64,000 nucleotides of DNA, taken from contig JAODTK010005522.1 of the NCBI GenBank assembly GCA_026419785.1, positions 1 through 64,000 of the forward strand, in the 5' to 3' direction. Position numbers and translations under genes: made by a program. Positions 8,671 through 52,294 of the stretch are shown one piece after another. The notes below the pieces were generated by a model. It searched no databases. It had not been told where the DNA came from and saw nothing but the letters and a program-made list of their open reading frames with translations. This DNA is from Sclerodactyla briareus (lineage: Eukaryota > Echinodermata > Holothuroidea > Dendrochirotida > Sclerodactylidae). Position 1 is the first letter of the stretch, and each line of letters starts with the position of its first letter.

Positions 8671-10365
8671 CGCATGCTAGCACTGAACAGTCGGGAAAAC
8701 AGGGACCAGATTCCCCCATAGCACTCTCGTTACGGGCAAGGGTCAATAATCGGGCGCCGGCGCACAAACAGAGCCCGGCAGGAGTGAGCGCCCGTAGAGT
8801 TCCAATTCAAATTCCACGGCGCTACCTTTTCCTGCAACCTAGCGCCCGTCAAACTTGTAGATCATCTTTACTTTGCCCAAACATCTAAAGTGAGCTACAC
8901 GAGTGTTCAAACGATTATGCCAATATCCGATGTTACCGATGATTTTTTCCTAAGCGGTCCGAGTCCGATTACGGCTTATTCAAGTCCATTACACGTTCAC
9001 ATGTAATTGCATTACGTGTAAGGCATGTACTTCCCTGAGTTAAATCCCATCAAGACCTACAGGGGTAGTCATAATTCAGCTTTAGTTTCAAGTAATTACT
9101 TATCAGATTCACTTTTTACGCATGCATGTTTGGTTCCCGGTGAAGGAAACAAAATAATATACGCAGCTTAGAATGATTCGGGAAGCTCCATACGTCTTGT
9201 GAAATCATAAAGTCGATAAGAGCGGCCAGTGGCACGGATCGAGAAGCTGAATTAGACTTTCCGTGAATACACCGTACACAAAAACGTGTGTACGTGTTAC
9301 ACATTGTAGCGGTAAACATCAACGTTCGATCATCGCTCCACACACCACTAAAGCTATAACGAGTTTTCCCATGGCCCCTGTGGTTAAGCTGAATAACTAC
9401 GAGCGTAGCGGTCGCGATTCACAAAAAGGTTGCTGGGCTGTGCACTAGCGTAGACCTACATACTCAAAGCATGAATGAATGGTTTTATTCACCAATTCTC
9501 AAATGGGTTCAACGATGATCGTGTTGACTCCGTGGCCGTCCTAATGTGCACTGTAGTTTGTTTTCCAATAACAGTTACAGAACAACGCTCATACACACCG
9601 CGACATGGGCTTACGCACGTGGGAGATTCTCATGTTCATGACTAAGTCTTGGTGCGACCGTGTGTTCATACTCGTAAGAGACTATCAAATGAATGTCTCT
9701 GCGTGAAGTAGTATTGGTTGACGTGATAACCCCCAGATGAGTCCCCGACATAATGTACTCACGAGATATGGAAGCATAGAAAATTTGAGATTGGTAAGTG
9801 TCCAATGAAGCTTCCTTCCAAAGGTGGCAAAACAAAACTAATCACTACTGTAAACCATCGTGTGTGCTGTATTGCCCCATTGCCTGTGTGGCATATTGTT
9901 TTGGTCACGACGAGCACATACATATTTTGCGATAAAAACTGTTTTTGCTTCCAAAACTCGTGTCACTTTAGTGGCCCCTGGTAAATAGAAAGTAGCCCAT
10001 GGTACCAATGAAATGCCCGTGAACCAGGGGCCACTTTTCTGAAAAAGTGGCCTGGTGCACACTTTCCTTACTTTACCCTTGGTTACGGGTATTTTTAAAT
10101 TTTCACCACTATTGAAAACCAACCCGTCATACCCACGTTTTTGGATGTTACTGTTGATACGCATGGGGAAATCTGTGAAGTTCTGTGTGGCAGGATTTGT
10201 GATGTTCGGCAGGGGAGTTGCGACAGATCGTCTGCATGCTGTTACGTTTTCAACATTGAAGTGCAATTGCCACATATAATCATTATATCTCATTAGACTG
10301 TAACAGCAAACAGGAATATAGCCACATACCTGCCAAACTCCACCCTGCCCTATATGGACCAACTT
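8671..10365. other. no gene recognised; overlaps the longest ORF of the window
   Basis: The longest open frame in the window, 211 codons on the minus strand, covers 9838-10473. It resembles no family I recognise, has no clear splice context, and its upstream end runs into a sequence that recurs at 10915-11000, so I do not call it a gene. The rest of the stretch is featureless. Confidence 0.4.
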
Positions 10366-43496: not shown

Positions 43497-44408
43497 CTAT
43501 CAGAGATGAGAAGGCGATGTTCGCCGATGCTCATCTACGATCAATACTGGCAGGGTCCCGGATGCAGCTTCAAAAACACATCCTGTTTCTGGTGCCCTTT
43601 GCCAGCTCAAATTCCTGAATGATTCCTTGCCCAAGGCAAAAGGAATCAAATCAAGCAGTCATGTCTGCGGCGAATGTGTGTTGTGTTGTGTGTGTGTGGG
43701 TGTCTGTATTGTGCTGTGGTGGGGGGGACACCTCTTGTCAGCACGATATCTAACGCACCCAAACAGGCATCAGGTTCAAATCATGTACGTGGTTGCTCAT
43801 GGGGAGAGGATGACCCCATTGTTTCTAGTGCCAAGTTCGAGGTCATGCAAGGCACTGATAGGCGAATTCAAAACTTTGTCAGCACGATATCTAATTAAGG
43901 CAAGTATCTATTGAGTTCTTATTAGGTATGCGGGTTGTACATATATTGATAATGAACCTGTTTATTTTTGGTGTCAGGTCAAAGGCATTGAAGGTCCCTA
44001 GGACCATCTTATTCTTGCAACGAAACATTTCAAGAGGAATGTTGTATTGGAAAGTCTGTTCGTCTAGGGTAAACTTAATCTGATGACCTACGTTTAACCT
44101 CATTCAACCCTTTACCTCATTTGAACTTATGACAAGTATTATTTGCATGTCGTTAATGACCAAGTACAGACGTCCTACTTGAAACCATTTGACAGCACAA
44201 TCCGGAGTGGTTGGTGTGCGGCAATTTAATTATTCTACTACTTGCCGTGTACTCCTATGGCCATTACGGGCTACCATAATGTCCAATGGTTATAAATGAT
44301 GATTTCCACTTTTTGGGCTCCCTGTTTGGATAATCCAACCGATCCCCTCAGCAATTTTTTGTTCATCTCAGCACCTCAGGGTTGTTGTTTCCCTATCACT
44401 TGCCCTAG
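43497..44408. other. no gene recognised; GT-rich tract and short dispersed words
   Basis: 43672-43725 is an imperfect GT-rich tract followed by a G-run. TGTCAGCACGATATCTAA occurs at 43737 and again at 43877, about 140 bp apart, with AGGTCA-type text between. This is probably one more TGACC-type repeat fragment. Confidence 0.45.
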
Positions 44409-44529
44409 GCTTTTGCTAAGTTGCATTATATTAGAGATCTAACAAATACTTGAGCTCTTGTCCAAATTGGGCTTTGCTAATTGCATTATCATTAGAGCGC
44501 TAACAACTATTGACTCTTGTCCAATTTGC
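44409..44529. repeat. tandem duplication of about 61 bp
   Basis: GCTTT(T)GCTAA, TTGCATTAT, ATTAGAG, CTAACAA, ACTATTG/ATACTTG and CTCTTGTCCAA recur in the same order in two adjacent units (44409-44470 and 44471-44529). Confidence 0.8.
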
Positions 44530-45107
44530 AACCCCCTGTCCCACCTCGCTGCACTGGTGACTATGGATATTGACCAGGTTGATTGGTAGCCAGGATTATA
44601 ATAATGACAATCTGCTCTTCACCCAATGGAGCCCATACTTTTGACTTGTGCTTTCCATGCAAGCAATGTATTTTCCCCAGACATGAAATCAGCGTCTGGT
44701 TGATTAATAAATATTCATAGTTTATTCTACACTAGATTGGTCGTTTTTCGAAAGTTTTAGAAACTGCCATCTCACTTAGATTTTTTGGGCATTTCCCCTA
44801 CCTGTCATCAGAATTATGTGCTTTAGATTTTCTGCAGAGTTTAACAGATATCCTGGTTGGGGGGAAGGAAAGTTTGTCAGGGCCTAGGAGTACCCAAGCC
44901 TTGCAACCATGTTTAGGTCCCTCCCCCTTTTGAACATGGGATGCTTTCAAAGATGCAACTTAGTAATTTGATGGGATAGAATTTTCCATGACAAAACCAG
45001 CTGCCAGCTCGAGTTAGGACATTATTATCTTATTATTCGTATCCATCCGAGTGCCACACTCGCCTGGAGTCGGTCTACTTGTTTTTTGCACCCATCGCGA
45101 GACTTTG

Positions 45108-45741
45108 TATAAAGATAATATATAATATATTTTAAATTAATTTAGTTATTCAGGAGACATATATACTTTCACGATCTTTAATCGTTTTACCGTTAAAGTC
45201 AATTCAGTGTCTAGGTCGTCCCGCTTAAGTCAGCTGACACTTGTTTTTTGTGTAACCTGAACTTAGGCTACAGTATATTCACTTATACTGTCACGTTTTT
45301 TAAGTTATCCTTGAAAGTTCTGGACCGAGCCTTTGTTAATCGACTAAATTGGATTCCATGGAGCATTAACTTGATTGCCTATGTAACTTATTCGCCCGTG
45401 TATCGGAACATTGTTTTCCACAAGTACACCTCCCCTTAGCTGTGATGTCCTACGCCTGAGTCCTGGCCACCAACCCTACCCGGACCGTTGAGCCGAGTTC
45501 TTGGCCCCGACCATCAACGTGTCAACGCAGTCCAGCCTGGAGCCGGTGACGAGGCTGAACTGAACTTTCTGTCAATCATTTTAAGTGGATCCACCGCGAC
45601 ATTATTTTGCACATATTCGCGCCCGATTCGTGACAATGACCAAGGCCCAGCTCAGAAGTCAAGCTGATGTTCAAGGAGTCTAGCTCTGATCACTGAGTAC
45701 CAGTTTATATTTTCATTAATTATGTCAACTGGCCATTGACA
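45108..45741 (+). mobile_element. 3' part of a probable long terminal repeat
   Basis: A TATAAAG word at 45108-45114 could be the LTR promoter. The stretch ends with TTGACA at 45741, four bases before a primer-binding site, in the position expected for the 3' edge of a 5' LTR. The left boundary of the LTR was not found because no second LTR is present in the window to align. Start given is therefore only the promoter-like word. The interior is featureless. Confidence 0.35.
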
Positions 45742-45745
45742 GGAT

Positions 45746-45763
45746 TGGCGCCCCACGTGGGGC
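45746..45763 (+). other. retroelement primer-binding site, tRNA-Lys type
   Basis: TGGCGCCCCACGTGGGGC matches the reverse complement of the 3' end of metazoan tRNA-Lys(CTT) at 17 of 18 positions, as recalled from known retroelement primer sites. It begins with the TGG that pairs with the tRNA CCA end. It directly follows the putative LTR edge. The inner 14 bases happen to be a perfect palindrome, so coincidence is not excluded, but the Gag-like text starting 66 bases downstream supports the call. Confidence 0.55.
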
Positions 45764-45828
45764 GAAAGATTCGACCTATTTGTATGGTGGCATATTGAGA
45801 TACATTCAGGATTAGAATTGATTAGTAG

Positions 45829-46290
45829 ATGTTAGATTATTGCAAACTCGCAATCTATCAGTCTGATACTAACACCATTATTATTGAGGGCATACCTCTT
45901 GAATGTTCGGGGTCTGATCTTAAGAAACATCTGGAGAAGGCAGGGGAGATAGATAAATTGAAATAGGGGCAGATCCTATAACAGGAAAGTCCACTGGGAC
46001 AGCTTCATGCGTGTATAAGGAAGCATATGCTGCTGACAGAGCACTAACACAGCTTGGAAATTTCAGGAGAAAGAGCTAACAATTGCCCTTGACCCGCCAG
46101 CCCACCAAAAGAAACTCCTAAACCTGACGAATCACCTAAAAGTGAAAATATTATTTTGTGCGAAGTCCCTCAGAGTAGACGAGGGCTACACTTGCTTAGA
46201 ATAAATCTCTAGATTTTAGGTGATCTTGAACGCGTCCTTTTGTTACAGAGGTTGGATATTGCGGCAAGAATAACTTAGCCATAGTTGCGT
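45829..46290 (+). pseudogene. frameshifted Gag remnant with RRM-like (PNMA-type) N-terminus
   Basis: An ATG at 45829 opens 45 codons to a TAG at 45964. The protein-like text then continues in a second frame (from 45969 to a stop at 46077) and in further frames to about 46290, so at least two frameshifts are present. The first segment contains NTIIIEGIPLEC, followed by a helix-like LKKHLEKAGEI. The second has GKSTGTASCVYKEAYAADRA. Together these follow the beta-alpha-beta order of an RRM, with an RNP1-like strand. The start, with Cys-5 and a GIP motif, recalls the N-terminal RRM-like domain of PNMA proteins, which derive from Ty3/Gypsy Gag. A lysine/proline-rich linker follows. No capsid, protease, RT or integrase text was found before an unrelated repeat begins near 46330. 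Gag would bind RNA and assemble particles; this copy is dead. Confidence 0.5.
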
Positions 46291-47595: not shown

Positions 47596-48050
47596 GTGTT
47601 GTAGTCGGGGCCGGCCTTGGCCTCACATTCGCCTGGTCTCGGCCTCGAATGCGCCCGGCCTCGGACTTGAATCGTGCTCTGAGGTCTCCATATATTCAGT
47701 GTAGAGATTCAATATCCGAGACCGGCCTCGGCCTCGAATTGGCTCGGAGGCCTCCATATATTCAGTGTAGAGATTCAATATCCGAGACCGGCCTCGAATT
47801 GGCTCGGAGGCCTCCATATATTCAGTGTAGAGATTCAATATCCGAGACCGGCCTCGAATTGGCTCCGAGTCCTCCATATATTCAGTGTAGAGATTCAATA
47901 TCCGAGACCGGCCTCGGCCTCGAATTGGCTCCGAGGCCTCCATTTTTCAGTGTAGAGATTCAATATCCGAGACCGGCCTCGAATTGGCTCCGAGGCCTCC
48001 ATTCATTCAGTGTAGATATTCAATATCCGAGTCCGGCCTCGACTTTGGAC
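47596..48050. repeat. minisatellite with 60/66-bp unit, about six copies
   Basis: The unit (GGCCTCCATATATTCAGTG, TAGAGATTCAATATCCGAG, ACCGGCCTCGAATTGGCTC) starts at 47683, 47749, 47809, 47869, 47935 and 47994. Spacings are 66, 60, 60, 66 and 59. The 66-bp units hold one extra GGCCTC. A GGCCTCG-rich degenerate prelude lies at 47600-47680. The first four spacings divide by three, so an open frame survives on both strands (47568-48167 plus, 47623-47943 minus), with a peptide repeat such as YIQCRDSISETGLELA. The frame is a by-product of the period. The 59-bp step shifts it, which argues against selection for coding. Confidence 0.9.
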
Positions 48051-48559: not shown

Positions 48560-50370
48560 ACGTCGTGTGTGTGGTGATTGACGCCCGCTTTTAAACACGA
48601 TAACTTATCAGGTCTGAGTAGGTCAGGCTCATACTTGTTATGTGTGTTCCCCCTGATGAGTACATGAACCCTATGTTTCTGGGTCAGGTCAAGGTCATTC
48701 TGCGGTGTCACCACGGTCAAGTCCTGAAAACTTGTAAACACGATAAGTCCAGAATGTTGGTCCGAATTCAAGTTGAATTTGGTGTACCGCTTCTTATGGG
48801 GATACAGGACCCTATTATTTTGGTTTCAATCAGAAGTGAATTTTGGTCGAAAAAAAAAAAATTGGGAATATTTGATATTTTAGCCAATTTTGACCTGTAA
48901 CACGATAACTCACCCCACCTGGATTGATAAAGCTCTACTTGGTATGTGTGTTCCCCATGATTAGTCTGAACCTATTGTTTCTGGTCATGTCAGAGGTCAT
49001 CTGGGGTCACCAGAGGTCAAAGTCTGAAAACCTTGTAAACACGATAAGTCAGAATTGTTGGTCTCCCTCAATTGAAATTTGGTGTACAAGCTTTCCTATT
49101 ATGGGGGAGGGTACAAAGGAACCCTATTAATTTTTTTGGTTCAAGAAGAAGTCAGGAGTAATTTCGTTCGAAAAAAAAAATTGGGAATATTTGATATTTT
49201 AGAAGGCCATGTTGACCTGTAAACACGATAACCTCAACCCCACCTGGATGATGCCTCATACCTTGGTATGTGTGTTCCCCATAGTGAGTACTGCACCCTA
49301 TTGTTTCTTCTGGGTCAGGTCAGAGGTCATCTTAGTCAACCAGAGGTCAAAGTCTGTAAACCTTGTAACACGATATTCCAGAATGGTTGGTCCGATCAAG
49401 TTGAAATTTGGTGTCACGCTTTCTTATGGGGAGTACAGGAACCCTATTATTTGGTTCAAGTCAGAGTGAATTTCGGTCGAAAAAAAGAAAATTTGGTGAT
49501 ATTTGCTATTTTAGAGCCATTTTGACCTGTAAACACGATAACTAACCCCACCTGGAGGATGAATCTCATACTTGGTTGTGTGTTCCCCATAGTGAGTACA
49601 TGAACCCTATGGTTTCGGTCGGTCAGAGGTCCATCTGAGGTCACCAGAGGTCAAAGTCTGGAAACCCTTGTAACACGATAAGTCCAGAATATTTGGTTTA
49701 GATCACGTTGAATGGGGTATAGCTAGCTTTCTTAACTGGGAGTACAGGAACCCTAGAGTTTTTGGTTCAGGTCGGAGGTTGAATTTTGGTCGAAAATAGA
49801 AAACTTTGTGAAAATTCGTCATTTGTCCATTTTTGGCTTGTAAACACGATAACTCGACCCCACCTTGATGGATACGCTCATACTTGGTATGGTGTGTTCC
49901 CCATGATGACTACATGAACCCTATTGTTTTGGGTCCGTTTAGAGGTCCATCTGGGGTCACCAAGTCCAAGTCCTGGAAACCTTGTAAACACGATAAGTCC
50001 AGATGGTTTGGTCTGATCAATGAAATTAGGTGTATATCGTTTCTTATGGGAGTACAGGAACCCTATGTTTTTTGGTTTCAGGTTCGGGGTGAATTTTGGT
50101 CGAAATAGGAAATATTGTGAAATTCGATATTTTTGGCCATTTTTGGCTTTGTAAACCGTTAACTCGACCCCACCTGGTGGATTGAAGCTCATACTTAGTA
50201 TGTGTGGTTTCCCCCCTGATGAGTACATGAACCCTATTGTTTTGGGCAGGTCCAGAGGTCCTCTGACGTGAGCAGAGTTCAAATCTGAAAACTTTGAACT
50301 TTATAGTGTGTACTTTCTACCAAGGGTACAGACCCATTAGTTTTTGGCTCGGAAAGATAGGCCATTTGTC
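48560..50370 (+). repeat. two-level satellite, about 310-bp unit made of two 155-bp halves
   Basis: TGTGTGTTCC marks six units at 48641, 48945, 49269, 49577, 49891 and (degenerate) 50201. Spacings are 304, 324, 308, 314 and 310 bp. Each unit has two related halves. Half one reads GTGTTCCCCATGATGAGTAC..AACCCTAT..GGTC and ends CTTGTAAACACGATAAGTCC. Half two reads GTGTA..CTTTCTTATGGGGAGTACAGG..AACCCTAT..GGTT and ends CCTGTAAACACGATAACTC. The array therefore grew by duplication of an A-B dimer. AGGTCA words recur in half one. A decayed half-unit follows to about 50370. ORFs of 60-130 codons within it are not conserved. Confidence 0.9.
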
Positions 50371-52222: not shown

Positions 52223-52294
52223 GCGTCGGTGGTGTAGTGGTTAGCATTGATGCCTTCCAAGCATTAGGCCTGGGTTCAATTCCCGGCCGACGCA
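52223..52294 (+). tRNA. tRNA-Gly (anticodon TCC)
   Basis: The 72-base sequence folds as a complete tRNA. The acceptor stem GCGTCGG pairs perfectly with CCGACGC (52287-52293) and is followed by discriminator A. The D arm GTGT/GCAT closes with two wobble pairs. The anticodon stem GATGC/GCATT has one wobble, with loop CTTCCAA and anticodon TCC at 52256-52258. The T stem CTGGG/CCCGG has one wobble, with loop TTCAATT. Internal RNA polymerase III A box (GTGTAGTGGTTAGCA) and B box (GGTTCAATTCC) are in place. There is no intron. It has no SINE body downstream, unlike the other tRNA-like sequences in the window. It decodes GGA and related glycine codons. Confidence 0.93.

What the first reader, a model, noticed from the sequence alone, without database searches (positions are those of the whole stretch)
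45746..46290. PNMA-like RRM domain in the Gag remnant of an LTR element
Seen: a tRNA-Lys-type primer-binding site, then an ATG and a decayed protein with beta-alpha-beta RRM order (NTIIIEGIPLEC, a helix, GKSTGTASCVYK). Known: PNMA proteins of vertebrates come from Ty3/Gypsy Gag and begin with an RRM-like domain. Inference: a non-vertebrate Gypsy lineage carries the same N-terminal fold, which would place the RRM-Gag fusion before the domestication of PNMA.
Basis: partly seen in the sequence, partly recalled or inferred. Interest (0 to 1): 0.7.

Follow-up and report, generated by a model that had tools for sequence, protein, structure and literature searches.

The report
Broken retrotransposon Gag with RNA-binding domain
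A dead fragment of an LTR retrotransposon, in what is probably an echinoderm genome, begins its capsid-type protein with an RNA-binding (RRM) domain like that of vertebrate PNMA proteins, which would extend a retrotransposon design described so far in vertebrates to a non-vertebrate animal.

Summary
At 45746-45763 lies a tRNA-Lys-type primer-binding site (1 mismatch). An ATG at 45829 opens two frame-shifted pieces (45829-45963, 45957-46076) matching consecutive parts of Pfam RRM_1. The stated 3' end is wrong: 46141-46190 is an LTR end, and a foreign repeat begins near 46193. The window copy has no capsid or pol.

Relatives lie at four other places in the genome, none intact. One ORF passes the RRM_1 cut-off (24.2 bits). 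A decayed full-length copy (contig C3134, about 199.8-208.9 kb) reads LTR, RRM, capsid pieces, CCHC, RT, integrase, LTR. A second Gag family passes Pfam's PNMA capsid cut-off; its only PDB matches (E<=1) are PNMA2 and MOAP1. Between window copy and relatives third codon positions vary most: past constraint.

The host looks non-vertebrate: its phosphagen kinase is closest to 3ju5, recalled as sea cucumber arginine kinase.

RRM-capsid-nucleocapsid Gags were described in vertebrate Metaviridae in 2024 (PMC11011659); that the fusion predates PNMA domestication is published. New here is the non-vertebrate host. PNMA-specific descent of the RRM is plausible, not proved: PNMA_N stays below cut-off, and independent RRM capture remains open.

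The parts
44241..44245 (+). possible 5' target-site duplicate CTTGC, repeated at 46191-46195 (tentative)
   Evidence: read from the sequence printed; two bases lie between it and the TG; the C3134 element shows no exact duplicate
44248..45741 (+). remnant of the 5' LTR (begins TGTACTCCTATGGCC); its last part (~330 bp in L021) is missing, and about 85-107 bp before the PBS match no LTR
   Evidence: collinear blastn hits to LTRs of L021, L022, L019 and L032, e.g. 227 bp at 88%, 172 bp at 81%, 89 bp at 90% to L021; last LTR match ends at 45634 (L021) or 45658 (L019)
45746..45763 (+). primer-binding site of tRNA-Lys1,2 type, 1 mismatch of 18
   Evidence: same site before Gag in L019 and L020
45829..45963 (+). 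Gag N terminus piece 1: ATG, DYC motif, RRM beta1 (NTIIIEGIPL), alpha1 (SDLKKHLEKAGE); strand and helix assigned from the profile match
   Evidence: RRM_1 1-27 12.7 bits, PNMA_N 8-42 13.8 bits (below cut-offs); 71% over 17 aa and 73% over 15 aa to L022, 64% over 22 aa to L019
45957..46076 (+). Gag RRM piece 2 after a frameshift: beta2, loop DPITG, beta3/RNP1, alpha2; assigned from the profile match
   Evidence: RRM_1 33-61 14.5 bits; 56% identity over 39 aa to L020
46141..46190 (+). last ~50 bp of an LTR (ends CTACA), taken as the remains of the 3' LTR; capsid, nucleocapsid, pol and most of the 3' LTR are missing
   Evidence: 98% to C3121:262433-262483; 79% over 53 bp to the L021 3' LTR end; best window matches of CA, CCHC and RT pieces are E 0.29, 0.15 and 0.35, and E 0.076 for the second family's CCHC, far away at 10030-10242
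46191..46195 (+). possible 3' target-site duplicate CTTGC (tentative)
   Evidence: read from the sequence printed
46193..46290 (.). foreign interspersed repeat, not Gag
   Evidence: 38 of the 40 listed genome matches (40 of 127 candidates were scored) cover only this part of the query, 78-88% identity

Best explanation
The stretch is what is left of an old Ty3/Gypsy (Metaviridae) LTR retrotransposon insertion whose Gag began with an RRM domain, followed in its ancestors by a PNMA-like capsid, a CCHC nucleocapsid, protease, RT and integrase. A deletion from the end of the RRM to the last ~50 bp of the 3' LTR removed the rest (inferred from anatomy). Most likely mode of action when alive (inferred, not shown): Gag assembled a capsid, and the N-terminal RRM, in the place of a retroviral matrix domain, bound RNA together with the CCHC knuckle, helping to select or condense the element's own RNA for reverse transcription primed by tRNA-Lys. 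The RRM is more likely than not (about 0.6) homologous to the RBD of vertebrate PNMA genes and their parent metaviruses; the stated confidence is for the RRM-Gag element reading. The window copy itself is broken and makes no Gag.
For: RRM. Element anatomy in the copy at C3134 ~199.8-208.9 kb (minus strand): LTRs of ~1.8 kb, 80.6% identical over 1707 aligned bases, K2P 0.225; RRM and CA pieces; CCHC 30.3 bits, above cut-off 20.8; RVT_1 in three ordered pieces of 19-22 bits, each below cut-off 29.6, and Integrase_H2C2 29.5 bits, above cut-off 25.5. Protease-like pieces in L020 (48% over 31 aa) and L019 (55% over 22 aa), each E 1.5e-4 to the second family's protease. PNMA link: the C441 CA piece of the RRM family gives Pfam PNMA positions 1-27 as its only hit, 12.8 bits; it matches the CA of a second Gag family (59% over 27 aa, E 3e-7), whose CA passes PNMA (29.1 bits, cut-off 25) and has 3 PDB matches at E<=1: PNMA2 twice (E 0.0036, 0.0069) and MOAP1 (E 0.52). 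The PNMA_N match of window piece 1 starts at the D of DYC; PNMA proteins carry DWC there (recalled). Constraint: dN/dS 0.26 and 0.16 for window against L019 and L020 over 39 codons, with dS above 1 and so rough. Host.
Against: PNMA_N is below cut-off for the window, has no genome hit and is not listed for the best RRM ORF. The direct PNMA capsid score of the RRM family is weak (12.8 bits, cut-off 25), and the genome search with PNMA found only the second family (1 match). RRM_1 passes its cut-off in one of the relatives only; L020 17.5 bits, L022 pieces no hit. The L019 protease-like ORF and the C3134 integrase-core and RNase H-like pieces have no fitting Pfam hit. None of the five copies examined has the whole RRM in one frame, so no fold was predicted. 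The C3134 locus is rearranged, so pol pieces near the other copies may belong to other elements. RNA binding is untested.
Confidence: 0.85

Rival explanations
1. Independent capture: this Gypsy lineage took up a canonical RRM from a host gene on its own, so the likeness to PNMA is convergence of domain order, not descent.
For: The 96-aa ORF scores with the general RRM_1 and not with PNMA_N; its best-scoring solved relatives are canonical RRMs such as hnRNP D-like, HuD and PUF60; the loop DPITG is of the canonical kind (recalled).
Against: The capsid that follows is PNMA-like, directly weak and through the second family stronger; window piece 1 scores slightly better with PNMA_N than with RRM_1, and its match covers the DYC stretch N-terminal to the RRM; PNMA RBDs may simply have lost the canonical loop (inference).
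Confidence: 0.3
2. The stretch is a processed copy of a host RRM gene that happens to lie behind an LTR.
For: Only the RRM part is left in the window.
Against: Two relatives keep the PBS in the same place, relatives align across leader and RRM, and one goes on into CA, CCHC and pol. Poly-A and introns were not searched for.
Confidence: 0.03
3. Chance reading of noise in decayed DNA.
For: Single-piece Pfam scores are below cut-off; the top PDB match of piece 1 is not an RRM.
Against: Relatives, third-position excess and a significant RRM score in a relative.
Confidence: 0.01

Closest known systems
RBD-CA-NC Metaviridae of vertebrates (e.g. Gypsy-30_Ami and relatives), PMC11011659
   Same: Ty3/Gypsy element; Gag with an N-terminal RRM-like RNA-binding domain, PNMA-like capsid, CCHC nucleocapsid
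   Different: That paper searched vertebrate genomes and elements (reptiles, amphibians, fish); here the host is probably an echinoderm, and the RRM scores better with the general RRM_1 profile
PNMA family genes (PNMA1, PNMA2, MOAP1/PNMA4)
   Same: Order RRM-like domain then capsid; capsid similarity of the genome's second Gag family to PNMA2 and, weakly, MOAP1
   Different: PNMA are domesticated host genes of mammals (PMC11011659); here it is a broken mobile element with LTR and PBS
Canonical RRM proteins (HuD, hnRNP D-like, PUF60, SRSF1)
   Same: sequence similarity over the RRM
   Different: They are host genes without capsid or pol

Membership tests
Ty3/Gypsy (Metaviridae) LTR retrotransposon | LTRs in pair with TG...CA ends | tested here: met
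   C3134 copy: two LTRs ~1.8 kb, 80.6% identical, ends TGT...CTACA as printed; window keeps most of the 5' LTR and ~50 bp of a 3' LTR end
Ty3/Gypsy (Metaviridae) LTR retrotransposon | tRNA primer-binding site behind the 5' LTR | tested here: met
   window 1 mismatch, L020 1, L019 2 of 18; none within 4 mismatches in L022. The tRNA pattern is recalled and was not checked against the host's own tRNA-Lys genes
Ty3/Gypsy (Metaviridae) LTR retrotransposon | gag then pol with RT before integrase | tested here: met
   in the C3134 copy only: RVT_1 pieces (below cut-off) then Integrase_H2C2 (above cut-off) downstream; absent from the window copy
RBD-CA-NC metavirus (PNMA parent type) | N-terminal RRM-like domain in Gag | tested here: met
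   RRM_1 24.2 bits over cut-off in the L019 ORF, window pieces homologous
RBD-CA-NC metavirus (PNMA parent type) | the domain matches the PNMA-specific N-terminal profile | tested here: inconclusive
   PNMA_N 13.8 bits on window piece 1, cut-off 27; no genome hit at E<=0.1, and no control genome rang; no PNMA_N hit listed for the 96-aa ORF
RBD-CA-NC metavirus (PNMA parent type) | PNMA-type capsid behind the RBD | tested here: inconclusive
   12.8 bits, cut-off 25, as only Pfam hit; supported through the second family
RBD-CA-NC metavirus (PNMA parent type) | CCHC nucleocapsid | tested here: met
   30.3 bits, cut-off 20.8, in the C3134 copy
RBD-CA-NC metavirus (PNMA parent type) | predicted RRM fold of the N-terminal domain | not tested
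   none of the copies examined has the whole domain in one frame; a joined frame was not made
PNMA host gene | domesticated, intact ORF without LTR and pol | tested here: not met
   frameshifted, with LTR and PBS

The most novel reading that the evidence does not exclude
The RRM-capsid-nucleocapsid Gag is older than the split of echinoderms and chordates; the canonical RRM loop kept in this lineage shows the ancestral state, and the odd RNA-binding domain of vertebrate PNMA genes is a derived RRM that Gypsy elements have carried since before vertebrates arose.
Probability: 0.4. Interest if true: 0.65.

Novelty: new member of a known kind. Interest (0 to 1): 0.45.

Why it matters
Mammalian PNMA proteins carry an RNA-binding domain that the paper I read (PMC11011659) traces to vertebrate retrotransposons. 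A non-vertebrate lineage with the same order of domains, whose RRM can still be recognised by sequence, gives an outgroup. With intact relatives it would let one date the fusion and test whether the domain binds element RNA.

Tried and rejected
DNA search for copies: for 45746-46140 only the window copy itself was found; protein search was needed. PNMA_N as a genome query: no hit, and no control genome rang, so this is not proof of absence. Viral contigs searched for relatives of the L020 RRM ORF and of the second family's capsid: none confirmed. N-terminal pieces of the second Gag family (L026, L028) look like a beta1 strand (LVQGSPKQ, LVQGIPKQ) but have no RRM hit in Pfam; left open. Mollusc haemocyanin, COX1 and Ig C1-set gave no hit in the genome; for haemocyanin and C1-set no control rang, while COX1 rang in 8 of 14 controls. 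So the host call rests on two phosphagen kinase exons. A processed host gene and chance were rejected (see rivals).

Papers: PMC11011659, section 10 whole and passages; PMC11261967, passages; PMC11840787, passages; all others only as search listings (one search listed none). Lists were capped: 20 of 44, 15 of 328, 20 of 904. In what was listed I saw no report of the domain in a non-vertebrate element; subscription papers and Repbase were not searched.

Full report
Observation. Three-frame reading shows the ATG at 45829 and a piece to 45963, then a shift into another frame for 45957-46076. Pfam matches the two pieces to consecutive parts of RRM_1 (positions 1-27 and 33-61) at 12.7 and 14.5 bits, both below the cut-off of 20.7; piece 1 also matches PNMA_N at 13.8 bits, cut-off 27. 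The primer-binding site at 45746 has one mismatch to the recalled tRNA-Lys1,2 pattern.

Relatives. The DNA of 45746-46140 has no other copy in the 319-Mb genome by nucleotide search. Protein searches found relatives at four other places: C3134 near 180.4, 190.4 and 206.7 kb, and C441 near 88.1 kb (two rows). The 96-aa ORF at C3134:180427-180714 passes RRM_1 (24.2 bits, E 3e-5), and 34 of its 34 PDB matches at E<=1 are RRM proteins by name. tblastn joins it to both window pieces (E 6e-11). The ORF at C3134:190.4 kb has RRM_1 at 17.5 bits, below cut-off, and two pieces of the 206.7-kb copy have no Pfam hit.

What follows the RRM. The copy on C3134 between about 199.8 and 208.9 kb (minus strand) is bounded by two LTRs of ~1.8 kb, 80.6% identical over 1707 aligned bases, K2P 0.225: an old insertion. 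Between them, in order, stand the RRM (NSIIIEGIPSG), capsid pieces (44% over 43 aa to the C441 capsid piece, E 9e-5), a CCHC knuckle (30.3 bits), three ordered RVT_1 pieces of 19-22 bits, each below the cut-off of 29.6, and an integrase zinc-binding domain above cut-off. The integrase-core and RNase H-like pieces had no fitting Pfam hit. Protease-like pieces lie in L019 and L020 (E 1.5e-4 to the second family's protease), though the L019 ORF has no Pfam hit. The C3134 locus is rearranged and holds further elements, so only this copy is used for the order of domains.

Capsid kinship. The C441 capsid piece gives PNMA as its only Pfam hit, at 12.8 bits and below cut-off. A second Gag family in the genome (L026, L028, L030/L031) matches it (59% over 27 aa, E 3e-7, composition correction off). 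That family's capsid passes the PNMA cut-off (29.1 bits; 27.8 bits and the only match by genome search). Its PDB matches at E<=1 are PNMA2 (two sequences, E 0.0036 and 0.0069) and MOAP1 (E 0.52).

Constraint. Between the window copy and L019 the two pieces differ at 22, 14 and 34 of 61 codons at positions 1, 2 and 3 (one-sided Fisher 5.5e-4). dN/dS is 0.26 (L019) and 0.16 (L020) over 39 codons, with dS of 1.4 and 1.7, so rough; L019 against L020 gives 0.84 over the same 39 codons and 1.4 over 87. I read this as protein-level constraint on the RRM while the lineages diverged and decay after insertion.

The window copy. Collinear LTR hits run from 44242 to 45634, or to 45658 by L019. The last ~330 bp of the L021-type LTR are missing before the PBS. 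The final ~50 bp of an LTR reappear at 46141-46190 (98% to C3121), and a foreign repeat begins near 46193. The best window matches of CA, CCHC and RT pieces are E 0.29, 0.15 and 0.35, and E 0.076 for the second family's CCHC piece, 36 kb away; I take these as chance. I infer one large internal deletion; a 5-bp duplicate CTTGC on both sides is tentative.

Host. The genome has phosphagen kinase exons at C2544. The two that I searched have 3ju5 arginine kinase as best PDB match: 102.6 bits against 91.4 for the next, and 66.7 against 55.1. Creatine kinases reach at most 87.4 and 51.6. That 3ju5 is the sea cucumber enzyme is recalled; a paper passage mentions a dimeric arginine kinase of the sea cucumber Stichopus japonicus. 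Apostichopus is an echinoderm. No Ig C1-set was found, but no control rang. I put non-vertebrate at about 0.93 and echinoderm at about 0.8.

Comparison with what is known. PMC11011659 (section 10 read whole) describes this RBD-CA-NC Gag in 12 Repbase consensus elements of reptiles, fish and amphibians and in 217 ORFs of seven vertebrate genomes, and concludes that the domain was in the metavirus before domestication in mammals. The addition here is a non-vertebrate carrier. Whether its RRM descends from the same fusion is not settled: PNMA_N scores are marginal and the RRM looks canonical, while the capsid behind it looks PNMA-like.

Mechanism. Shown: anatomy and a signal of past constraint. 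Inferred: Gag assembly, RNA binding by the RRM together with the CCHC knuckle, and tRNA-Lys priming.

Noticed in passing
window 48627-50296: Tandem array of a ~310-bp unit, 5.4 copies; a related array (69% over 1.95 kb) lies at L023 3649-5491, next to another RRM-Gag copy.
   Followed up: partly
window 46193-46290: Interspersed repeat of about 100 bp with at least 38 other copies, 78-88% identical; identity unknown.
   Followed up: no
window 52223-52294: tRNA-Gly (TCC) gene.
   Followed up: no
window 47676-48042: 60-bp tandem repeat, 5.9 copies, inside open frames on both strands.
   Followed up: no
L026, L028, L030/L031: Second Gag family with a capsid over the PNMA cut-off; its N-terminal pieces (NLVQGSPKQ, ILVQGIPKQL) may be a second, diverged RRM-like domain, without Pfam support.
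   Followed up: partly
L020 807-1163: RT of another or the same element (RVT_1 59.7 bits), more than 2 kb from the RRM-Gag remnant and its protease-like piece; the stretch between was not identified.
   Followed up: no
C3134 180-209 kb: Three RRM-Gag copies and several LTR pieces of this family are clustered within 30 kb, with local rearrangement.
   Followed up: partly
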